This document shows positions 7,249-26,796 of a stretch of DNA of 64,000 bases, one piece after another; the first letter of the stretch is position 1, and every line of letters begins with the position of its first letter. The translations under genes were made by a program, and so were the position numbers. The notes beneath the pieces were generated by a model, which worked only from the letters and a program-made list of their open reading frames with translations, ran no database searches and was not told the DNA's origin. Source of the stretch: Aequorivita xiaoshiensis (GTDB lineage Bacteria > Bacteroidota > Bacteroidia > Flavobacteriales > Flavobacteriaceae). The stretch covers positions 1-64,000 of the forward strand of contig NZ_JAIRBB010000010.1 of NCBI RefSeq assembly GCF_022008395.1, given 5' to 3'.

Positions 7249-7381
7249 AAGGCATTTTTTTAGTCGTTAGATTTATTATGTTAGAAGTTATTCTATTTTA
7301 CATCAAACTGTAATAAATCATTAAAATTAAAGCCATTAAAATTGTTATGGCGCAATATATTTTTATTAATCAAAAATAGTT

Positions 7382-16308: not shown

Positions 16309-16614
16309 ATGAAATTAGGCAATCGCATTAAAGAGCTGAGAGAAAGCCAAGGTTTATTACAACGGCAACTCTCGGCACAGTTAGAAATTGACACCCCTAT
16401 GTTTAGCAAGATTGAACGTGGAGAGCGTAGAGCCAAACGGGAACAGGTGCTAAAAATAGCGGAGCTATTAAAGGCCGATGAAAAGGAACTATTGGCTTTG
16501 TGGTTGGGTGACCAAATTATGGAGATAGTTACAGATGAAGAACAAGCTTTGCAAGCTTTAAAAATGGCAACAAACGATATTAAAGAAAACAATAAAAATA
16601 AAGATTCAGAATGA
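16309..16614 (+). CDS. XRE-family HTH regulator heading the type I R-M operon
   Basis: 101 residues. A Cro/C1-type helix-turn-helix occupies roughly residues 4-62 (IKELRESQGLLQRQLSAQL as helices 1-2, then DTPMFSKIERGERRAK for the recognition helix and turn). A charged tail follows. Its stop overlaps the hsdM start (ATGA), so it is translationally coupled to the methylase. By position it probably acts as a controller protein timing methylase and nuclease expression; that is inference. An inverted repeat upstream is a possible operator. Confidence 0.85.
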   Translation: MKLGNRIKELRESQGLLQRQLSAQLEIDTPMFSKIERGERRAKREQVLKIAELLKADEKELLALWLGDQIMEIVTDEEQALQALKMATNDIKENNKNKDSE

Positions 16615-18380
16615 ACCAAACACAACATAACGCTATTGTAAATTTTATCTGGAGCATTGCAGATGATGTATTACGTGATGTATATACAAGAGGTAAATAC
16701 AGAGATATTATTTTGCCATTTACAGTATTAAGAAGATTGGATGCCATTCTTGAACCGACTAAAGATAAGGTATTAGAAATGCACCAAAAGTTAAACGAAA
16801 TGAAGATTGACAACCAATCGCCTCAACTTCGTAAAACAAGCGGTTATGTGTTTTACAATACCTCTAACTATACGTTTAAAAGGCTATTAAACGAACCGGG
16901 TAATATCCGCCAGAATTTAGAAACTTATTTAGATGGGTTTAGCAGTAATGTACAAGACATCATTAGTAAGTTTAAACTACGCAACCAGTTAGAAACTTTA
17001 GAAGAAGGAAACATTACATTTCCATTAATAGAAAAGTTTTGTTCCAGTACCATAAATGTAAGTCCAAACCCTGTTACTGATAAAGATGGTATTGTAGTTA
17101 TGGAAGGCTTAACCAATTTAGGAATGGGCTATGTTTTTGAAGAATTGATACGAAAGTTCAATGAAGAAAACAATGAAGAAGCAGGAGAACACTTTACCCC
17201 AAGAGAGATTATTAAGTTAATGACCCATTTAATTTTTGAACCCTTAAAAGGTAAAATTAAAGACGGAACCTATTTAATATACGACCCAGCTTGCGGTAGT
17301 GGTGGTATGCTTACAGAAGCAGAACATTTTGCTAAAAATTTGAATCCAAAGGCAACCTTTCATTTATACGGTCAAGAAGTAAACCCTGAAACCTATGCCA
17401 TTTGTAAAGCAGATATGTTGATTAAAGATGAAGACCCAGAGAAAATTGCTTTTGGCTCTACATTAAGTAAAGACGGTTTTCCAAACTTACAGTTTGATTT
17501 TATGATAAGTAATCCACCGTATGGAAAAACTTGGAAAGTAGATAAAGATGCCATTCTCGATAAAAAAGAAATCATAGACCCACGTTTTACAGTAGGTGTT
17601 CCAAGAATAAATGATGGGCAATTACTCTTTGTAATGAACATTGTTTCTAAACTAAAAAAGAATAGTCCATTAGGTAGTAGAGCAGCAACGATACATAACG
17701 GTTCAGCTTTATTTACTGGTGATGCAGGACAAGGAGAAACCGAAATACGCAAGTATCTTTTAGAAAATGACTTATTAGAAGCCATTATTGCTTTGCCTAA
17801 CGACTTATTTTACAATACAGGGATTCCTACTTATATTTTTATTCTGAACAATAAAAAGGATGAAAACCGCAAAGGCAAACTGCAACTAATAAGCGTTACT
17901 ACCGAGCAGTTTTACAGTAAAATGCGAAAGCCTTTAGGTAAAAAGCGTGTAGAATTTACGGCAGCCCATATTAGAACTATTACAGACTTGTTTTTAAACT
18001 TTGAAAACAACGAAAACAGCATTATTCTCGATAATGAAGACTTTGGTTACAGCCAAATAACCGTACACCGCCCACAACGTGATGAAAATGGCAACATTAT
18101 AAGAGATAGCAAGAAAAAGCCTAAAAGCGATACCGCACTAAAAGACAAAGAAAACATCCCTTTAAAAGAAGATATAGATGCCTTTTTTGAAAAAGAGGTA
18201 TTGCCCTTTGCAGAAGATGCTTGGTACAACCCAAAAGAAACCAAAATAGGCTACGAAATAAACTTTGCCAAATACTTCTACAAACACAAAGCCCCAAGAG
18301 CATTAGAACAAATATCTGCCGATATTTTTAAGATTGAAGAAGAAACAGAGCATCTATTAAAAGAAATTGTAGAAGCATAA
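16611..18380 (+). CDS. hsdM: Type I restriction-modification DNA methyltransferase subunit HsdM
   Basis: 589 residues with an N-terminal helical HsdM domain (1-~130, FIWSIADDVLRDVYTRGKYR) and a C-terminal gamma-class N6-adenine methyltransferase. The SAM motif I is DPACGSGGM at 225-233 and catalytic motif IV is NPPY at 301-304. It methylates adenine in the sequence chosen by HsdS and is also part of the restriction complex. The HTPRE-like motif (EHFTPREIIKLM) just before motif I is typical of the family. It is joined to the upstream regulator by a 4-nt overlap and to hsdS without any gap. It is intact. Confidence 0.97.
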   Translation: MNQTQHNAIVNFIWSIADDVLRDVYTRGKYRDIILPFTVLRRLDAILEPTKDKVLEMHQKLNEMKIDNQSPQLRKTSGYVFYNTSNYTFKRLLNEPGNIRQNLETYLDGFSSNVQDIISKFKLRNQLETLEEGNITFPLIEKFCSSTINVSPNPVTDKDGIVVMEGLTNLGMGYVFEELIRKFNEENNEEAGEHFTPREIIKLMTHLIFEPLKGKIKDGTYLIYDPACGSGGMLTEAEHFAKNLNPKATFHLYGQEVNPETYAICKADMLIKDEDPEKIAFGSTLSKDGFPNLQFDFMISNPPYGKTWKVDKDAILDKKEIIDPRFTVGVPRINDGQLLFVMNIVSKLKKNSPLGSRAATIHNGSALFTGDAGQGETEIRKYLLENDLLEAIIALPNDLFYNTGIPTYIFILNNKKDENRKGKLQLISVTTEQFYSKMRKPLGKKRVEFTAAHIRTITDLFLNFENNENSIILDNEDFGYSQITVHRPQRDENGNIIRDSKKKPKSDTALKDKENIPLKEDIDAFFEKEVLPFAEDAWYNPKETKIGYEINFAKYFYKHKAPRALEQISADIFKIEEETEHLLKEIVEA

Positions 18381-19625
18381 ATGATGGTACAAGAAACATA
18401 TAAAACCACTTGGTTAGCTAAAGCTCCAGAGCATTGGAATAGGTTGCGTATCAAAAATATTTTTGCTGAAATTGATGAAAGAAGCGAAACAGGACAAGAA
18501 GAATTATTATCTGTTTCTCACTATACTGGAGTTACCAAAAAAAGAGATAGCCTTGAAAATGAAACCGATTTTATAAGCAATGCCAAAACCTTAGTAGGCT
18601 ATAAAAAAGTAGCTGAAAACGATTTGGTAAGTAACATTATGTTGGCTTGGAATGGTAGTTTAGGTATTTCTAAATACAATGGTATTACAAGTCCTGCCTA
18701 TTGTGTGTATCGCATTAAAGGAGACAACAACCCTAATTATTTTGGCTATTTGTTTTCTACTGCATTTATGAAAGCGGAGTTTAGAAAAAAGTCTTTTGGC
18801 ATTATTGATAGTAGATTACGTTTATATTCCGATAAGTTTTTTAGTATTCCTGCTCCTGTACCACCCAAAGCAGAGCAAGACCAAATTGTAGCCTACATAA
18901 AAGAACAATCCAAAAAAATAAAACACTTCATTAAAAAGAAGCAAACCTTTATTGGCTTACTAAAAGAGCAAAAACAAAGCGTTATTGATAAGTTATTAAT
19001 TAATAAAGGTAAAAAGGTAAAGATAAAATATTGTGTTTCTAAAATAGGTGGTGGTGTTACACCAAAAGGAGGAGCTACTGTTTATAAGAAAAGTGGAATA
19101 CTGTTTTTACGCAGCCAAAATATTTACAATGATGGTTTGTACTTAGATAATGTTGCATATATAACCGAAGAAATTCATTCTTCAATGAAGGGTTCACAAG
19201 TGAAAAAGAATGATGTATTAATCAATGTTACAGGTGGTTCAATTGGTAGATGTTACACATATTTTCTTGATGAAGAAGCAAATGTTAATCAACACGTTAC
19301 TATAATTAGACCAATTTTAGACATTCTAACTCCAGAGTTTTTGATGTTACAACTACAATCTGATAGGATTCAACATCAAATTGATATGATAGAAGGAGCA
19401 TCAAGAGAAGGTTTGACTAAAGGTGATATTTCAAACTACTACCTTTATTTACCACCAAAAGAAGAACAAGCCCAAATCGTTTCGCACATCAAAACTGAAA
19501 CTGCCAAAATAGACCAAGCCATTACCAAAGCCCAAAAAGAAATAGAGCTTATAAAAGAGTACAAAGAAGCTATGATAGCAGAAGCCGTATTGGGAAAGTT
19601 TAATCATAAAATTGTAAAGTCATAG
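18381..19625 (+). CDS. hsdS: Type I restriction-modification specificity subunit HsdS
   Basis: 414 residues organised as two target-recognition domains (about 1-165 and 208-365). Each is followed by a conserved helical spacer containing (Q/E)EQ/DQIV, then KIKHFIKKKQTFIGLLKEQK in the centre and KIDQAITKAQKEIELIKEYK at the end. This is the normal full-length arrangement for recognising a bipartite target. The two starts ATG-ATG at 18381 and 18384 cannot be told apart. The first codon follows the hsdM stop directly. The target sequence cannot be read from the protein. No inverted repeats or second hsdS that would indicate phase variation are present. Confidence 0.95.
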   Translation: MMVQETYKTTWLAKAPEHWNRLRIKNIFAEIDERSETGQEELLSVSHYTGVTKKRDSLENETDFISNAKTLVGYKKVAENDLVSNIMLAWNGSLGISKYNGITSPAYCVYRIKGDNNPNYFGYLFSTAFMKAEFRKKSFGIIDSRLRLYSDKFFSIPAPVPPKAEQDQIVAYIKEQSKKIKHFIKKKQTFIGLLKEQKQSVIDKLLINKGKKVKIKYCVSKIGGGVTPKGGATVYKKSGILFLRSQNIYNDGLYLDNVAYITEEIHSSMKGSQVKKNDVLINVTGGSIGRCYTYFLDEEANVNQHVTIIRPILDILTPEFLMLQLQSDRIQHQIDMIEGASREGLTKGDISNYYLYLPPKEEQAQIVSHIKTETAKIDQAITKAQKEIELIKEYKEAMIAEAVLGKFNHKIVKS

Positions 19626-19627
19626 AT

Positions 19628-20713
19628 ATGTCAGATCATAACGAAAACATAGAACAAGAAGATGTTGGAATGGCAATGAAAAAACCTTTCAACCCAAACA
19701 ATATCAAAGTAAGGTTGCAGGCTATACCAATCTATGCTATGGCTGAAAGAATACATCATAATGAAATAAACTTACAAACTGCGTTTCAGCGGAAAGAGGG
19801 TTTGTGGAAAGACAAACAACAGAGTAGACTAATAGAATCGATACTTATTAGGTTTCCATTACCAGTATTTTATTTTGAAGGAAGTGACCCTGATAAATGG
19901 CTGGTTATAGATGGATTACAAAGGTTAACAAGTTTAAAAAGGTTTATGGTTACAAAAGAACTAAAACTAACCGATTTAGAATTTCTTAAACAATTAGAAG
20001 GCAAGGGATGGGATGATTTAGATAGACCGCAACAACGTCAAATAAATGAAACCATATTACAGTGCCACATTATAGAAGAAGGAGATGATGATGCAATATT
20101 TAATATTTTTAAGCGAATTAATACAGGAGGTTTAAGCCTTTCAGACCAAGAGATAAGGCACGCTATGCACCAAGATGTAGCAGATTATTTAAAAAATCTT
20201 GCAGAATCACAAGAGTTTATAAAAGCAACAAGAGGAAAAGTGAGTCCAGAAAGAATGCTGGATAGAGATTTTGTAAATAGATTTTTAGCTTTCTATTTGT
20301 TCAATCAAGAAACAGACTATACCTATGATGACGACTTAGATTCATTTATGAACAGAACTTTGGATAAGGTCGCAACTTTATCACAGTCAGAACGGCAAGA
20401 TTTGGAGTTGAGATTTAAGGCAGCTATGGATACAGCACGTAGTATTTTTGGCGATTCTGCATTTTGTAAAAAGAAAGATTACAAAAGAATTAACAAAGCC
20501 CTTTTTGAAGTAATAGCTGTGTCGTTTGCTAAATTGTCCGATAATCAAAGAGATGAATTAGTAAGAAAAAAGACAGCTTTTAGAACATTATTTTTCAATT
20601 CTGTCAATGTGAGGTTTGCTGATTCTTTAACCAGTAATACTGGTGGTAAATCAAACATAGCATTAAGACATAGAGAATTTAATAATCTGGTAAATAGCAC
20701 ACTAAATAGTTAG
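19628..20713 (+). CDS. DUF262 (ParB/sulfiredoxin-like fold) protein in the R-M operon
   Basis: 361 residues. The N-terminal half is a DUF262 domain: LQTAFQRKEGLWKDKQQSRL (about 49-68), then IRFPLPVFYFEG and the signature DGLQRLT at 95-101 (family consensus DGQQRLT), which binds or hydrolyses nucleotides in relatives. A typical follow-on motif, FKRINTGGLSLSDQEIRHA, lies near 165-183. There is no DUF1524 HNH nuclease domain, so it is not a complete GmrSD or SspE-type enzyme; the C-terminal half is helical and unassigned. It starts 2 nt after hsdS and ends 3 nt before the ATPase gene. DUF262 occurs in SspE, BrxU and GmrSD defence proteins; its role here is inferred. Confidence 0.85.
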   Translation: MSDHNENIEQEDVGMAMKKPFNPNNIKVRLQAIPIYAMAERIHHNEINLQTAFQRKEGLWKDKQQSRLIESILIRFPLPVFYFEGSDPDKWLVIDGLQRLTSLKRFMVTKELKLTDLEFLKQLEGKGWDDLDRPQQRQINETILQCHIIEEGDDDAIFNIFKRINTGGLSLSDQEIRHAMHQDVADYLKNLAESQEFIKATRGKVSPERMLDRDFVNRFLAFYLFNQETDYTYDDDLDSFMNRTLDKVATLSQSERQDLELRFKAAMDTARSIFGDSAFCKKKDYKRINKALFEVIAVSFAKLSDNQRDELVRKKTAFRTLFFNSVNVRFADSLTSNTGGKSNIALRHREFNNLVNSTLNS

Positions 20714-20716
20714 ATT

Positions 20717-21814
20717 ATGATAACACATATAGATATAAAAAATTTTAAATCATTAAAGAATGTTTCTACCGATACTAAAAACCTAAATCTTTTAATGGGT
20801 TTAAATGGTATGGGTAAAAGTTCATTTCTACAAATGATTCTTTTACTAATGCAGAGTGATAAATTAGAAAACAGGATTATAGACCTTAATGGTATATTGG
20901 CCCAAATTGGTCAAGGTAGAGATGCTCTTTATCAATATGCTACAGAAGACCATATAGAATTTGGTATTCAATTTCAAAACGATAATAAATTTAGTTGGAA
21001 ATTTAATTATCACACAGATAGAGATAAATTAACAGCAGAAAATGGCTTTACAAAAGACGAGATGCAATTCTTTAGAAATGAAACTAAAGTCTTTCAATAT
21101 ATAAGTGCAGACCGCATAGGACCAAAAGATTTATATGATGCATCAAGTGTTGTTGTATCAGACAAAAAACAGTTAGGACTTTTAGGTGAGTATGCAGCTT
21201 ATTTTATTAATGTTTTTGGAGCAAGTTATGAAGTAAAAGAGTTATTACAGCATCCAAAAGCAAAATCCGAAAGTCTAAATGCTCAAATTAATGCTTGGTT
21301 AAAAGAGATTTCTCCAGGAGTGTCATTAAATACAAAATATGTTCCAGAGGCAAACAAGGTAATCTTAGATTATCAATTTGATATAATTGGCAATAAGACT
21401 AATTCATTTAGACCAAAAAATGTTGGGTTTGGAATTTCTTATGTGCTTCCTATTGTTTTAGCTTTACTAACAGTAGAAGAAGGTAAAATTATAGTAATTG
21501 AAAATCCTGAAAGCCATATACACCCAAGAGGTCAAGCAGAATTAGGTAAACTTATAGCTTTAGCAGCCCAAACAGGTGCTCAAATTTTTGTTGAAACACA
21601 CAGTGACCATATCCTTAACGGAATTAGAGTTGCAGTTAAAGAAGAAAATATAGACAAAGAAAATGTCAATATTTTATATTTCGATAAAACTACAAACGAG
21701 AAAGAATCTTATACAAATATTCATAAATTAAAATTGGATATAAATGGTACTTTGAGTGATGAACCTGAAGGACTTTTAGATGAATGGGGAACGCAATTAC
21801 TAAAACTCTTGTAA
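20717..21814 (+). CDS. DUF3696-type AAA/ABC-like ATPase in the R-M operon
   Basis: 365 residues in one ABC/OLD-like ATPase domain. Walker A is GLNGMGKS at 28-35. The Walker B region is IIVIENPE at 258-265, followed by SHIHPRGQAELGKL, which is the D-loop region of this group. ETHSDHIL at 293-300 carries the switch histidine. The tail (KLKLDINGTLSDEPEGLLDEWG) resembles the DUF3696 end. There is no TOPRIM nuclease as in OLD proteins and no long coiled coil, so it probably acts as a sensor or motor for partner proteins. It lies 3 nt after the DUF262 gene and 2 nt before the YoeB-fusion gene, suggesting a three-protein unit. Confidence 0.85.
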   Translation: MITHIDIKNFKSLKNVSTDTKNLNLLMGLNGMGKSSFLQMILLLMQSDKLENRIIDLNGILAQIGQGRDALYQYATEDHIEFGIQFQNDNKFSWKFNYHTDRDKLTAENGFTKDEMQFFRNETKVFQYISADRIGPKDLYDASSVVVSDKKQLGLLGEYAAYFINVFGASYEVKELLQHPKAKSESLNAQINAWLKEISPGVSLNTKYVPEANKVILDYQFDIIGNKTNSFRPKNVGFGISYVLPIVLALLTVEEGKIIVIENPESHIHPRGQAELGKLIALAAQTGAQIFVETHSDHILNGIRVAVKEENIDKENVNILYFDKTTNEKESYTNIHKLKLDINGTLSDEPEGLLDEWGTQLLKLL

Positions 21815-21816
21815 CT

Positions 21817-22686
21817 ATGGAATTAATATGCAATGAGCTTTCATATTATCCAATAGCGAGTAGTAATAATGAAGCAGAAACAAGGTTTAATCAATTATTG
21901 AAGTGTTTTAAAGAGGCTAATAAAACCTTTGGTTTTAAAACCATACGTTTTCATTCAAACTTTGCAGAACAGGATATTACTGCGGATAAAAAGTTTTTTG
22001 AATGGGTCTCGACTGTTAGTAATTCAACATTAAAAAATACCATTCTTTCTTTTTTTCGCAAACCTTTTGCAGATGATTTAAATGATAAAGAATTAGAAAC
22101 ATTTTTAGAAAGTGATTATACAATTGCACACGATAATGTTCCCACAAAAGAAAGTCCATTGGGGCTTCCTATTGCTCATATAAAATCAACAATAACATTA
22201 AGTTTTAATTCTGATATTTTTTGGCAAAAAAGAAAAATTAATATTATCAAAACGAACACTTCAGAACCCGAAAACTTAGAATTTGCAGCTTACAATATTT
22301 GTTTAGAAACCGACTTAAAAGAAGATGAAATAGTAGAATGGACAGATAACGTAATGTCTAATTCTATAAATTCTAAAGAGATGGTAATTAAGTATTTGTC
22401 ATATTCAAAATACAGAGTAGAACTTACAGATGCTTTTTTAGCTGAATTGTTGTATTGGAGAGAAAATAATATAGAGCTGTTTAGATATACTCTTTTATTA
22501 ATGAAAGATGTAGAGGTTCATCCTTTTACAGGAGGTATGGGGCAAACAGAAAATTTAAAATACAACGGAAAAGAAGCATCAAAACGCATTACCAATACTT
22601 ATCCTGATGGCGATAGGCTAAGTTATTTTTTAGAAAATGACACGGTAATTTTTGTTGCTTGTAAAGGCCATTATAAATTTCATTAA
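21817..22686 (+). CDS. Novel-domain protein with a C-terminal YoeB-type mRNA interferase domain
   Basis: 289 residues from the ATG at 21817. An upstream in-frame start (21784) would overlap the ATPase gene; the 21817 start follows the ATPase stop by 2 nt like the other junctions. Residues ~200-289 align along the whole length of the YoeB toxin: LLYWRENN matches YLYWQETD, HPFTGGMGQTENLK matches TPFEGKGKPEPLK, SKRIT matches SRRIT, GDRLSY matches EHRLVY, and ACKGHY matches ACRYHY. The positions equivalent to YoeB Glu46, Arg65, His83 and Tyr84 are Glu245, Arg267, His285 and Tyr286. The first ~195 residues match no family I know. YoeB cleaves mRNA in the ribosomal A site. No YefM-like antitoxin is adjacent, so control may lie in the N-domain or the two preceding proteins. 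Confidence 0.8.
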   Translation: MELICNELSYYPIASSNNEAETRFNQLLKCFKEANKTFGFKTIRFHSNFAEQDITADKKFFEWVSTVSNSTLKNTILSFFRKPFADDLNDKELETFLESDYTIAHDNVPTKESPLGLPIAHIKSTITLSFNSDIFWQKRKINIIKTNTSEPENLEFAAYNICLETDLKEDEIVEWTDNVMSNSINSKEMVIKYLSYSKYRVELTDAFLAELLYWRENNIELFRYTLLLMKDVEVHPFTGGMGQTENLKYNGKEASKRITNTYPDGDRLSYFLENDTVIFVACKGHYKFH

Positions 22687-22687
22687 T

Positions 22688-25648
22688 ATGCAAACATCCG
22701 ATACATCAGAAAAAGGCTTAGAAACTGTCATAGAAAAACACTTGATAGAAAATAATGGCTACCGCCAAAGTTATAGTGCAGATTACGACAGAGACCTTTG
22801 CATTAATAAAAAATTGCTCTTTGAGTTCATTAAAGAAACACAGCCACTTGCTTACGATACCATTCTAAAAAGAGGTGAAGAAAAGTTTGTTAAGAGGTTA
22901 ACAGACCAAATAAGACAAAAAGGAATAATTGAAATTTTACGTAACGGTATTAAAGATTTAGACCTTAGAGTACAACTCTACTACAAAAAGCCAACATCAC
23001 ATTTAAACCAAACAGCCCAAAAACAATATAAAGCAAATATCTTTTCAGTTACTCGTCAGTTATATTACAGTTTAGCCAATAGCAATTCATTAGATATGGT
23101 AATTTCTATAAACGGATTACCAGTAAGTACTTTAGAATTAAAGAATCAATGGACAGGACAAAATGTAAAAAATGCCATTCGTCAATATCAAAACGATAGA
23201 GACCCAAAAGAAGCCTTATTTACATTTGGCAGATGTATGGTACACTTTGCTGTAGATGCAGACTTAGTGTATATGACAACCCATTTGAGTGGCACTAAAA
23301 CATTCTTTTTACCATTCAATAAAGGAAATGATGATGGTGCTGGAAATCCATTAAATCCAAATGGTCTAAAAACAGATTACCTCTGGAAAGACATATTAAC
23401 TAAAGAAAGTTTTAGTAATATCATTGAAAACTATGCTCAAATAGTTGAGGAAAAAGATGAAGATACAGGCAAAATAAAACGGAAATTGATATTTCCGAGA
23501 TACCACCAATTAAGAGCGGTTAAAACCATATTAGACCACGCTAAAGAAAACGGAGTAGGTCAAAAATACTTGATACAACATTCAGCAGGTTCAGGTAAAT
23601 CAAATTCTATTACTTGGTTAGCTCATCAATTAGTCAGTCTTCATAATACAGAATATACAGAAGCTGTCTTTGATAGTGTTATTGTAGTAACCGATAGACG
23701 AGTTTTAGACAAACAAATTAGAGATAACATCAAGCAATTTGCTCAAGTAAATAGTGTTGTAGAAGCGATAGACAAAGGAAGTCGGCAACTCAAACAAGCC
23801 TTAGAAGATGGTAAGAAGATTATTGTTACCACCGTTCAAAAGTTCCCTTTCATCATAGATGAAATAGGAACTCTACAAGCTAAAAAATTTGCTATACTTA
23901 TTGATGAAGCTCATAGTAGTCAAAGTGGAGAAACAGCCAGTAAAATGAACTGGGTATTGTCTGAAAAAGAAACGCCTTACGGAGAAGAACAAGAGCCACC
24001 AACATCTGAAGACGTTATCAATGAATTGATTGAAAGTCGCAAGATGCTTAAAAATGGGAGTTACTTTGCCTTTACAGCAACCCCTAAAAACAAAACCTTA
24101 GAAACTTTTGGTACGCAAACAGCAGAAGGAAAATTTAAGGCTTTTGATACGTATACAATGAAACAGGCAATTGAGGAAGAATTTATCCTTGATGTCCTTA
24201 AAAATTATACGACTTACCAATCTTACTACAAATTAGATAAAGCAGTAGAAGATAATCCAGAATTTGAAACACGTCAAGCAAATAAGAAATTAAGGGCGTA
24301 TGTAGAAAGTCATCCGTTTTCTATTATGGAAAAGTCCAAAGTAATGTTAGACCATTTTCATACGGATATTAGAAAACAGATTAACGGACAAGCCAAAGCA
24401 ATGGTAGTTTGTAAAAGCATCAATAACGCTATCAAATATTTCCTCGCATTTAAAGAATATTTAAAAGAAATCAATTCGCCTTACAAAGCTATTGTTGCAT
24501 TCTCAGGCACAAAAGAATTAGATGGTGAAGATGTAGATGAAGCTAAATTAAACGGTTTCCCAAGTAATGATATTCCTAATGAGTTTAAGAAAAAAGAGTA
24601 CCGTTTCTTAATTGTAGCTAATAAATTTCAAACTGGTTTTGACCAACCTCTTTTACATACAATGTATGTAGATAAAAAATTGGCAGATGTTCAAGCGGTA
24701 CAAACTTTATCAAGATTAAACAGAGCTTACAAACCGTATAAAGAAGATACGTTTGTAATGGATTTTTTCAACTCAACAGAAGATATTAAAAAAGCATTTG
24801 AACCATTCTATACCACAACTATTTTAAGTGAAGAAACAGATGCTAATAAGCTAAACGACTTACAAGATGCTTTAGACAATGCACAAGTGTACTCTCAAGA
24901 TGATGTTGTAAATTTTACAGATTTATACTTTAAAGAAGCCGGCAGACAAGAATTAGACCCTATTATTGATAAGTGCGTAGCAGAGTTTAAAAATGAATTG
25001 GGAGAAGATGCTCAAATTGATTTTTATGTAAAAGCAAAATCATTTTTTAGAACCTATGCTTTTCTCTCAAAGTTGTTATCATTTAATAATGCTTATTGGG
25101 AACGATTATATTGGTTTTTAAAATTTCTCATACCAAAAATAAAACCTGAAGAAATTGAAGATTTAGCTAAGGGAATTTTAGAAGCTATAGATTTAGATAG
25201 CTATAGACTTACTCGTACTACACAAGAAGATATTAAATTAAAGGGAGAAGAGGAATTAGACCCTACACCGCCTGTAATGAAAGGTAAAAAGGGTGAACTT
25301 GGATTTAATGAATTAGATGCTATTATAAACGACTTTAATACAAAGTTTGGTATTGATAATTGGACAGATGATGATAAGGTGAAAAACTTTTTGTTTGAGC
25401 AATTACCAGCAGACTTTGCTCGTGATGAAGATACAGTTAATGCAGTAAAGAATAGCGACAAACAAAACGCCAAAATCACTTCTGATAAAAAGGTAGAAGA
25501 CTTAATGCAAGATGTGATATTTCAGTATACAGACTTGTACAAGAAATTTACTGACGACCCTGACTTTAAACGTCAATATTTAGACTTCGTATTTGATAAA
25601 ATATGGAATCAACAAAACAATCAAAATAGCTCGAATGTGAATAAATAA
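22688..25648 (+). CDS. hsdR: Type I restriction endonuclease subunit HsdR
   Basis: 986 residues from the ATG at 22688, one nucleotide after the previous stop (an earlier in-frame start would overlap that gene). The N-terminal PD-(D/E)xK nuclease has Asp136 and Glu150-x-Lys152 (in STLELKNQ). The helicase motor follows with Walker A SAGSGKS at 299-305, DEAH at 406-409, FTATP-K as motif III and QTGFDQPLLHTMYVD with QTLSRLNRAYKPYK as motifs V-VI. The C-terminal helical region assembles with HsdM. It cuts unmethylated DNA at a distance from the recognition site. It appears fully intact, so the R-M system should be active. Confidence 0.97.
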   Translation: MQTSDTSEKGLETVIEKHLIENNGYRQSYSADYDRDLCINKKLLFEFIKETQPLAYDTILKRGEEKFVKRLTDQIRQKGIIEILRNGIKDLDLRVQLYYKKPTSHLNQTAQKQYKANIFSVTRQLYYSLANSNSLDMVISINGLPVSTLELKNQWTGQNVKNAIRQYQNDRDPKEALFTFGRCMVHFAVDADLVYMTTHLSGTKTFFLPFNKGNDDGAGNPLNPNGLKTDYLWKDILTKESFSNIIENYAQIVEEKDEDTGKIKRKLIFPRYHQLRAVKTILDHAKENGVGQKYLIQHSAGSGKSNSITWLAHQLVSLHNTEYTEAVFDSVIVVTDRRVLDKQIRDNIKQFAQVNSVVEAIDKGSRQLKQALEDGKKIIVTTVQKFPFIIDEIGTLQAKKFAILIDEAHSSQSGETASKMNWVLSEKETPYGEEQEPPTSEDVINELIESRKMLKNGSYFAFTATPKNKTLETFGTQTAEGKFKAFDTYTMKQAIEEEFILDVLKNYTTYQSYYKLDKAVEDNPEFETRQANKKLRAYVESHPFSIMEKSKVMLDHFHTDIRKQINGQAKAMVVCKSINNAIKYFLAFKEYLKEINSPYKAIVAFSGTKELDGEDVDEAKLNGFPSNDIPNEFKKKEYRFLIVANKFQTGFDQPLLHTMYVDKKLADVQAVQTLSRLNRAYKPYKEDTFVMDFFNSTEDIKKAFEPFYTTTILSEETDANKLNDLQDALDNAQVYSQDDVVNFTDLYFKEAGRQELDPIIDKCVAEFKNELGEDAQIDFYVKAKSFFRTYAFLSKLLSFNNAYWERLYWFLKFLIPKIKPEEIEDLAKGILEAIDLDSYRLTRTTQEDIKLKGEEELDPTPPVMKGKKGELGFNELDAIINDFNTKFGIDNWTDDDKVKNFLFEQLPADFARDEDTVNAVKNSDKQNAKITSDKKVEDLMQDVIFQYTDLYKKFTDDPDFKRQYLDFVFDKIWNQQNNQNSSNVNK

Positions 25649-26349: not shown

Positions 26350-26796
26350 GCGTGGTCCACCAGATCAGGAATGCTTGCAGGTACGTTGTATGGAAGGATA
26401 AAAAAGCCTTTACCGCTGACATGAAGCATATATATAATGCGCCCAACCAAGATGCCGCCAAAATGGCCTTAGCGGATTTTGCCCAAAAATGGGACGGAAA
26501 ATATTCCTATGCCATAAAGAGCTGGCGGGACAACTGGGAAGAGCTCATGGTGTTCTATGAGTTCCCCCTTGGAGATCCGGAAGATCATATACACCACAAA
26601 CCTGATAGAGAACCTGAACGGGAAAATAAGAAAGTACACTAAGAACAAACTTTCCTTCCCAACGGACGACGCCGTGATGAAATCCGTATATTTGGCAGTG
26701 CGTGAAGCAACCAAAAAATGGACTATGCCTATCAGGAATTGGGGTATTATTTTAAATCAGTTCCTAACGATCTATGAAAAAAGGGTCAGACTTTAA
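26350..26796 (+). pseudogene. IS256-family transposase, 5'-truncated and frameshifted
   Basis: The C-terminal ~150 residues of an IS256-type (mutator-like) transposase are present: CVVHQIRNACRYVVWKDKK, then [37 protein letters not shown] and [16 protein letters not shown]. The frame shifts near 26568, between FYEFPL and the continuation IRKIIYTTN. The N-terminal ~250 residues, including the first catalytic Asp residues, are missing. It is therefore dead. The junction with the HigB remnant at about 26350 shows that a deletion joined the two. Confidence 0.9.

What the first reader, a model, noticed from the sequence alone, without database searches (positions are those of the whole stretch)
19628..22686. 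Three-gene cassette (DUF262, DUF3696-type ATPase, YoeB fusion) nested between hsdS and hsdR: candidate undescribed defence module
All junctions from hsdS to hsdR are 1-3 nt, so the cassette is a structural part of the operon, not a nearby passenger. The logic parallels EcoprrI, where the PrrC anticodon nuclease is carried within the type I locus and fires when phage inhibits restriction. Here the suicide effector would be a ribosome-dependent mRNase, with an ATPase and a DUF262 protein as sensor or inhibitor. I do not recognise this combination as a named system.
Basis: inference. Interest (0 to 1): 0.9.

Follow-up and report, generated by a model that had tools for sequence, protein, structure and literature searches.

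The report
Menshen defence cassette inside restriction operon
The three genes are a known kind of anti-phage system (Menshen, here ending in a YoeB-type RNA-cutting toxin) that sits as an exchangeable cassette between two genes of a restriction enzyme operon; the system itself is known, but the clean swapping of whole cassettes and of the toxin gene at this spot is interesting.

Summary
In detail: hsdS|nsnA|nsnB|nsnC|hsdR with 2, 3, 2 and 1 nt junctions. The module is not undescribed: PADLOC profiles identify Menshen NsnA (E 8.5e-118), NsnB (4.8e-110) and NsnC (2.8e-32, residues 1-183), and the same gene set with a YoeB end was printed in 2025 as ptuXYZ (PMC11980606). The catalytic YoeB residues are invariant in 16 of 16 relatives. 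The PrrC analogy is not supported: 7 of 17 YoeB-type cassettes lie outside type I operons in the stretches held, and no HsdR was found in 4 of 9 genomes examined that carry one. What is worth keeping is the architecture. A near-identical hsd frame (HsdM 97%, HsdR 96%) in L126 carries a divergent Menshen cassette; high DNA identity ends at the nsnA ATG and resumes 1 nt before the hsdR ATG. In 18 of 22 comparable operon pairs homology breaks at the nsnC start and resumes in hsdR. In relatives the hsdS-hsdR slot is empty or holds RhuM, GmrSD-like or Tiamat genes. Most likely an independent abortive-infection system using a shared operon slot.

The parts
16309..16614 (+). HTH (Cro/C1-type) regulator gene, first gene of the operon, overlaps hsdM by 4 nt
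   Evidence: Pfam HTH_31/HTH_19/HTH_3; the 91% DNA block shared with L126 starts at its ATG
16611..18380 (+). hsdM, type I methyltransferase
   Evidence: PADLOC MTase_I 3.3e-246; Pfam N6_Mtase, HsdM_N
18381..19625 (+). hsdS, type I specificity subunit (ATG at 18381 or 18384)
   Evidence: PADLOC Specificity_I 8.8e-79; Pfam Methylase_S
19628..20713 (+). nsnA: DUF262 (ParB/Srx-like) protein without DUF1524, Menshen NsnA
   Evidence: PADLOC NsnA 8.5e-118; GmrSD_N; D95-G-L-Q-R99 invariant in 8 of 8
20717..21814 (+). nsnB: ABC/SMC-like ATPase with DUF3696 tail, Menshen NsnB
   Evidence: PADLOC NsnB 4.8e-110; AAA_15, AAA_21, DUF3696
21817..22686 (+). nsnC: Menshen NsnC, N-terminal domain (about residues 1-185) plus C-terminal YoeB effector
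   Evidence: PADLOC NsnC 2.8e-32 over residues 1-183; AlphaFold2 model pLDDT 84.7, pTM 0.79
22429..22674 (+). YoeB-type mRNase domain of NsnC; conserved E245, R257, R267, H285, Y286
   Evidence: Pfam YoeB_toxin; PDB YoeB by sequence and fold (TM 0.77-0.83 on the target); invariant residues
22688..25648 (+). hsdR, type I restriction subunit
   Evidence: Pfam HSDR_N, SWI2_SNF2; NCBIfam hsdR 8.1e-67, 226 bits, under that model's cut-off of 285

Best explanation
The three genes are a Menshen anti-phage system (nsnA-nsnB-nsnC) whose effector protein NsnC ends in a YoeB-type mRNase; the same thing has been called ptuXYZ. It rides as an exchangeable cassette, presumably transcribed with its neighbours, in the hsdS-hsdR slot of a type I restriction operon, but does not need that restriction enzyme. 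Proposed working: NsnA (DUF262 nucleotide switch) and NsnB (SMC/ABC-type ATPase) form the sensor, which holds the NsnC toxin silent through NsnC's N-terminal domain; an infection cue not yet known changes the NsnA/B state and frees the YoeB domain, which cleaves mRNA in the ribosomal A site and stops growth (abortive infection). Shown here: family identity, gene order, intact catalytic residues and predicted fold, recurrence, exchange of cassette and effector, no YefM-type antitoxin found in this genome. Inferred: silencing by NsnA/B and the NsnC N-domain, trigger, mRNA cleavage, abortive outcome, independence from HsdRMS.
For: PADLOC NsnA, NsnB and NsnC matches. A third gene follows nsnB in 77 of 80 NsnA loci of one scan (defined by position; 67 of the 77 match an NsnC N-domain profile). 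YoeB domain by Pfam, PDB sequence profile (1.9e-18) and fold, residues invariant in 16 of 16. One YoeB domain (this one) and no PhdYeFM antitoxin found in the window's own genome, 99.94% complete. The YoeB-type cassette is outside type I operons in 7 of 17 loci, in the stretches held, and no HsdR was found in 4 of 9 genomes that carry it. The DNA match to L052, which shows no hsd genes in the 15.2 kb held, is exactly 19627-22687, the three genes. Hsd frame 96-97% identical in L126 (HsdS 67%) while NsnA, NsnB and NsnC are 45, 47 and 24%; high-identity blocks end at the nsnA ATG and restart at 22687. In L180 the same slot, with 83-86% DNA identity in the main flanking blocks, holds RhuM instead of Menshen.
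Against: No phage or toxicity experiment was possible. Menshen's trigger and mechanism are unknown to me from any held paper. Type I embedding is frequent (13 of 80), and 2 of the 7 YoeB-type loci outside type I operons abut another methylase or RM gene (L074, L103), so a benefit of pairing with modification systems is not excluded. The genomes without HsdR are drafts of untold completeness, and 5 of the 9 do have HsdR elsewhere. A review reports an OLD-type nuclease in Menshen; no TOPRIM domain was found here. A profile of NsnA finds no solved structure, and the NsnC N-domain has no fold match in the PDB, so its role as docking or inhibitor domain is a guess.
Confidence: 0.77

Rival explanations
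1. PrrC-like second line: HsdRMS holds the YoeB effector silent, and phage inhibition of restriction (Ocr- or Stp-like) releases it.
For: Effector inside the type I locus with tight junctions. PrrC is silenced by EcoprrI and activated by T4 Stp (PMC2610378, abstract and passages). Type I embedding is common, 13 of 80. 5 of 9 examined genomes have HsdR somewhere.
Against: 7 of 17 YoeB-type cassettes are outside type I operons in the stretches held and no HsdR was found in 4 of 9 genomes examined. Embedding and YoeB type show no association on the tree, although the test has little power (7 independent pairs, median p 1). Different cassettes lie under a near-constant HsdM/HsdR frame. The same tight junctions occur in a trp operon.
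Confidence: 0.12
2. Complementary pairing as proposed for TgvAB: Menshen's DUF262 protein recognises modified phage DNA that the type I enzyme cannot cut, so co-transcription of the two is selected, without physical coupling. (A sub-question within the best explanation; its odds overlap with it.)
For: DUF262-bearing GmrSD, BrxU and SspE respond to modified DNA (PMC10952713, passages). TgvAB sits inside a type I cluster and acts on hypermodified phages (PMC11411939, passages and conclusion). GmrSD-like proteins occupy this slot in HsdR/HsdM relatives (L153, L182). Menshen also lies inside a type III and an Hma module and beside C5 methylases.
Against: NsnA lacks the DUF1524 nuclease. The cassette also sits in a trp operon (L058) and behind mnmG (L052). 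No specificity can be tested here.
Confidence: 0.35
3. Convenience only: the cassette is in the slot because the slot recombines readily and supplies transcription; there is no benefit of proximity to restriction. (Also a sub-question within the best explanation.)
For: Replacement of cassettes and of nsnC at gene edges. Slot contents vary among relatives: empty, RhuM, GmrSD-like, Tiamat, DUF4145. Same junctions in a non-defence operon.
Against: Repeated association with several modification systems (types I and III, Hma, C5 methylase) looks non-random, though I did not test it against a background rate.
Confidence: 0.4

Closest known systems
Menshen (NsnA-NsnB-NsnC), as modelled in PADLOC-DB 2.0.0 (Millman et al. 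2022, paper not held)
   Same: All three genes, order and strand; near full-length NsnA and NsnB profile matches; NsnC N-terminal 183 residues
   Different: The NsnC C-terminus is a YoeB domain that, scanned alone, matches no PADLOC model at E <= 0.01; the cassette is nested in a type I operon. The original paper and Li et al. 2025 (gkaf357, domain polymorphism of Menshen) were not held, so the YoeB form and the nesting may be described there.
ptuXYZ (Gerdes 2025, PMC11980606)
   Same: DUF262 protein, P-loop ATPase, two-domain protein with a C-terminal YoeB-related domain; 17 operons shown; the modelled PtuZ is from a Flavobacterium (section 26 read)
   Different: The terms 'Menshen' and 'hsd' do not occur in its main text, so its identity with Menshen and the nesting are added here; its PIN-like reading of the N-domain was not reproduced by Foldseek of the full model against the PDB
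TgvAB (Vibrio VPI-2), RloF and DarTG2 embedded in type I RM operons
   Same: Another defence gene set inside a type I operon; RloF (DUF262) and DarTG2 lie between hsdS and hsdR, TgvAB is GmrSD-related and said to be positioned like RloF
   Different: Different genes and effectors; no Menshen ATPase or YoeB domain reported in the passages seen
PrrC/EcoprrI
   Same: Translation-targeting effector genetically linked to a type I enzyme
   Different: No anticodon nuclease here; dependence on HsdRMS not supported
YefM-YoeB toxin-antitoxin
   Same: YoeB fold and conserved catalytic residues
   Different: No YefM-type antitoxin found in this genome; the toxin is a C-terminal domain of a larger protein
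Cami1 (CARF-RelE effector of type III CRISPR; identity recalled)
   Same: RelE-type ribosome-dependent mRNase as output domain of a defence sensor (recalled; Foldseek row 11, E 0.1, not significant)
   Different: Sensor domain, operon and trigger unrelated

Membership tests
Menshen | NsnA DUF262 protein | tested here: met
   PDLC03877, E 8.5e-118, residues 5-360 of 361
Menshen | NsnB ATPase | tested here: met
   PDLC03878, E 4.8e-110, residues 1-365
Menshen | NsnC third gene | tested here: met
   Best PDLC03895, E 2.8e-32, but residues 1-183 only; the C-terminus is YoeB
Menshen | OLD-family TOPRIM nuclease domain reported for a Menshen component (PMC10952713) | tested here: not met
   No TOPRIM family among Pfam hits of the three proteins; NsnB has AAA_15, AAA_21, DUF3696 and weaker ATPase matches. 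PADLOC files this NsnB as Menshen all the same, so I treat the domain as not defining; the review may refer to the OLD-like AAA_15 part or to another variant.
Menshen | anti-phage activity needing the genes together | not testable with these tools
   needs experiment
ptuXYZ | DUF262 protein without DUF1524 | tested here: met
   GmrSD_N found, no GmrSD_C at E <= 0.1
ptuXYZ | PtuA-like P-loop ATPase | tested here: inconclusive
   NCBIfam PtuA matches residues 2-59 only, E 9.1e-5, far under its cut-off
ptuXYZ | YoeB-related C-terminal domain | tested here: met
ptuXYZ | PIN-like N-terminal domain of the third protein | tested here: inconclusive
   No PIN structure among the 50 listed Foldseek PDB matches of the full-length model; the domain alone was not searched
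YefM-YoeB toxin-antitoxin | cognate YefM/Phd antitoxin | tested here: not met
   0 PhdYeFM matches in the own genome at E <= 0.001
PrrC/EcoprrI | PrrC anticodon nuclease carried in the type I locus | tested here: not met
   the genes between hsdS and hsdR are NsnA, NsnB and NsnC
PrrC/EcoprrI | silencing by HsdRMS | tested here: inconclusive
   no HsdR found in 4 of 9 examined genomes with YoeB-type cassettes, drafts; needs experiment
GmrSD/TgvAB | DUF1524 HNH nuclease domain | tested here: not met

The most novel reading that the evidence does not exclude
The hsdS-hsdR junction is a scar-free exchange slot with three nested levels: whole defence cassettes swap between a near-constant HsdM and HsdR, the nsnC gene alone swaps between nsnB and hsdR, and (seen in one pair, window-L179) the YoeB effector domain can travel with hsdR independently of the NsnC N-domain. 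Restriction operons then act as recombination vehicles that diversify both DNA specificity (hsdS) and the suicide effector (nsnC) of an independent system, and NsnA/B accept unrelated effectors because only the NsnC N-domain docks to them.
Probability: 0.45. Interest if true: 0.62.

Novelty: new member of a known kind. Interest (0 to 1): 0.42.

Why it matters
It links two literatures that use different names (Menshen and ptuXYZ), suggests that a YoeB toxin can be run without a YefM antitoxin, and gives natural sister operons (similar HsdR and NsnB, unrelated NsnC: L059, L060, L064, L072; L106, L111) in which one can ask directly how one sensor accepts unrelated suicide effectors. It also shows that 1-3 nt junctions do not by themselves prove functional coupling between a defence gene and its host operon.

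Tried and rejected
PrrC-like coupling: examined and not favoured. YefM-YoeB TA: rejected, no antitoxin found. Type IV restriction by NsnA alone: no DUF1524. Relation of the other NsnC C-terminal classes to YoeB: profile comparison found none (probabilities 0.54% and 0.30%), and PDB profiles gave nothing convincing, so my own first guess that class c2 is RelE-like is not supported. Fold of the swap-partner class c0 (L064): confident model (pLDDT 93.4), no PDB match at E <= 0.001; a weak PADLOC link to CARF_DUF2103 (E 3e-4 in L064 and L056) is only a lead. Bacteroidota promoter pattern (consensus recalled): 2 hits in the window, one at 7381 and one antisense inside hsdR, none upstream of this operon, and fewer than the chance mean of 4.84. 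Plasmid search with NsnC: no match at E 1e-8.

Hsd calls use profiles built from the window's own family and the loci near it and will miss remote type I systems. The third gene was taken by position: 10 of the 77 match no NsnC N-domain profile. The first tree coded every non-type-I locus as 'not'; the second leaves loci cut by contig ends out of the embedding count and drops 24 distant rows. Left out of the pairwise boundary table: L057 (extra genes in the slot) and L088 (hsdR cut by the contig end); boundaries there are those of blastn local alignments. L059's hsdR is read in two ORFs, and its identities use the better piece.

Papers: Li et al. 2025 (PMC12065111), Payne et al. 2024 and Millman et al. 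2022 were asked for and not held; I know them only as references or from recall. PMC12704722 and PMC12839542 were seen as passages only.
Full report
Observation. The operon 16309-25648 reads HTH regulator, hsdM, hsdS, DUF262 protein, ATPase, third protein, hsdR, all on the + strand. From hsdS on, the junctions are 2, 3, 2 and 1 nt.

Identity. PADLOC-DB identifies the three genes as NsnA (E 8.5e-118), NsnB (4.8e-110) and NsnC (2.8e-32, residues 1-183) of Menshen. The YoeB part scanned alone matches no PADLOC model at E <= 0.01, so this is a Menshen whose NsnC effector end is not in that library. Gerdes 2025 (PMC11980606; abstract and outline, sections 26 and 35, and search passages seen) describes DUF262 + PtuA-like ATPase + a two-domain protein ending in a YoeB-related domain as ptuXYZ, with 17 operons; the terms Menshen and hsd do not occur in its main text. 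That ptuXYZ is a form of Menshen is my inference from the profile matches. A paper on Menshen domain polymorphism (Li et al. 2025) exists but was not held, so I do not claim that the YoeB form or the nesting is unpublished. In one search, among 22 of 22 papers holding two of the terms Menshen, type I restriction and YoeB, none held both Menshen and YoeB.

Effector. In 16 YoeB-type NsnC proteins E245, R257, R267, H285 and Y286 are invariant. By the alignment to E. coli YoeB (2a6q) these correspond to E46, R59, R65, H83 and Y84 (numbers and catalytic roles recalled). The AlphaFold2 model (pLDDT 84.7) matches YoeB structures with TM 0.77-0.83 on the target; the N-terminal half has no PDB match. 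In the own genome (99.94% complete) one YoeB domain was found, this one, and no PhdYeFM antitoxin.

Recurrence. In a sample of 395 genomes of the phylum, 31 have an NsnA relative at E <= 1e-20, other DUF262 families included. One scan of genome contigs with an alignment of 8 NsnA proteins gave 479 confirmed relatives, of which the best 80 were kept. A gene follows nsnB in 77 of 80; 67 of these match an NsnC N-domain profile. Clustering the C-terminal parts of 78 third-gene proteins (window plus 77 loci; 4 too short to place) gives class c0 with 32, YoeB with 17 (window included), c2 with 16, c3 with 7 and two singletons. HsdS immediately upstream and HsdR downstream were found in 13 of 80 loci, 11 of the 57 with at least 1.2 kb of contig on both sides. 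Of the 17 YoeB-type loci 7 are so embedded (the window counted), 1 (L053) lies beside an HsdR fragment, 2 (L061, L062) cannot be judged and 7 (L032, L052, L055, L074, L076, L086, L103) show no type I flank in the stretch held; two of these seven abut another methylase or RM gene (L074, L103). On a tree of 58 NsnA+NsnB pairs the effector class needs at least 13 changes (52 rows scored) and type I embedding at least 8 (43 rows scored, 14 embedded); YoeB type and embedding show no association, with little power (7 independent pairs).

Exchange. Window versus L126 (Flavobacteriaceae MAG): HsdM 97%, HsdR 96%, HsdS 67%, but NsnA 45%, NsnB 47% and NsnC 24%. At DNA level the 94% block ends at 19630, the end of the nsnA start codon, and the 90% block starts at 22687, one base before the hsdR start codon; between them only patches of 65-73% remain. 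Window versus L052, which has mnmG upstream and no hsd genes in the 15.2 kb held of its 21.6 kb contig, match only over 19627-22687. Among 78 pairs of 13 embedded operons, 22 share hsdR above 70% DNA identity. In 18 of these the shared block ends within -28 to +47 nt of the nsnC start and resumes at hsdR (16 within -6 to +8 nt of its start, two at +216 and +243); in 3 homology runs through; in one (window-L179) it resumes inside nsnC at codon 205, the start of the YoeB domain. L059, L060, L064 and L072 share HsdR at 92-97% and NsnB at 88-94%, while NsnC is 25-27% in five of the six pairs and 89% in one; NsnA varies too, 70-95%, so recombination is not confined to nsnC.

The slot. Among 25 HsdR or HsdM relatives, mostly distant (19; 6), the hsdS-hsdR gap shows no ORF of 70 aa or more in 6 (L157, L166, L167, L169, L170, L184), holds Menshen genes in 3 (L156, L162, L179), and in others RhuM (L180), DUF262/GmrSD proteins in pairs (L153, L182), Tiamat TmtA (L154), DUF4145 (L152) or an M78 peptidase-like protein (L161). 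The other 10 were cut by contig ends, not scanned or not identified. Menshen also sits flush between type III mod and res (L099), between HmaB and HmaC (L109), and between trpD-like and trpC-like genes (L058).

Mechanism. The tight junctions suggest co-transcription, not coupling. PrrC is silenced by EcoprrI and freed by Stp (PMC2610378, abstract and passages). For YoeB-type Menshen, neither an hsdR profile (E <= 1e-10) nor HSDR_N (E <= 0.001) was found in four of nine genomes (those of L052, L055, L076, L103); the other five have HsdR somewhere. In the genomes of L055 and L103 no PhdYeFM was found either. Completeness of these drafts is untold. The likeliest reading is that NsnA and NsnB hold NsnC silent, with release on infection and A-site mRNA cleavage by the YoeB domain; these steps are inference. 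Whether the pairing with restriction is selected (as proposed for TgvAB, PMC11411939, passages and conclusion) or merely convenient is open. Other papers were seen as passages only: PMC10952713, PMC12255303, PMC4619093.

Verdict. Known system, correctly spotted, wrongly called undescribed. The remaining interest is the nested exchange of cassette, gene and perhaps domain at gene edges, and the natural sister operons it provides.

Noticed in passing
L058:1361-6139: A Menshen cassette lies flush (2 and 3 nt gaps) between trpD-like and trpC-like (IGPS) genes of Candidatus Symbiothrix dinenymphae: a defence cassette inside an amino-acid operon.
   Followed up: partly
L064:7125-7409 and 31 other NsnC C-termini: The commonest effector class (c0, 32 of 78 third-gene proteins) has a confident predicted fold without a PDB match at E <= 0.001, conserved H-G and T-G-x-N motifs and a weak link to the DUF2103 part of a CRISPR CARF effector.
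   Followed up: partly
L186:1368-6686 (Vibrio phage L9-1): A Peduoviridae phage carries nsnA-nsnB-nsnC, annotated as hypothetical proteins, just after a cytosine methyltransferase gene.
   Followed up: partly
L057:7199-11853: NsnC is only 205 aa and is followed by a nucleotidyltransferase-substrate-binding gene and an hsdR ORF whose start looks nucleotidyltransferase-like by eye: a second module in the same slot.
   Followed up: partly
L179:5407-13034: The hsdS-hsdR slot holds five genes in a row: a PDDEXK_3 protein, RhuM, nsnA, nsnB and nsnC.
   Followed up: no
window 26352-26642: Remnant of a Mutator-family transposase just downstream of the operon (Pfam Transposase_mut).
   Followed up: no
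window 16309-16614: Small HTH regulator overlapping hsdM by 4 nt, inside the block shared with L126; comparable in position to RptR in the DarTG2 island.
   Followed up: no
L103 and L131, genes just upstream of nsnA: C5 cytosine methylase genes directly upstream of nsnA (3 nt before it in L103, 4 nt overlap in L131), a further modification-gene association.
   Followed up: no
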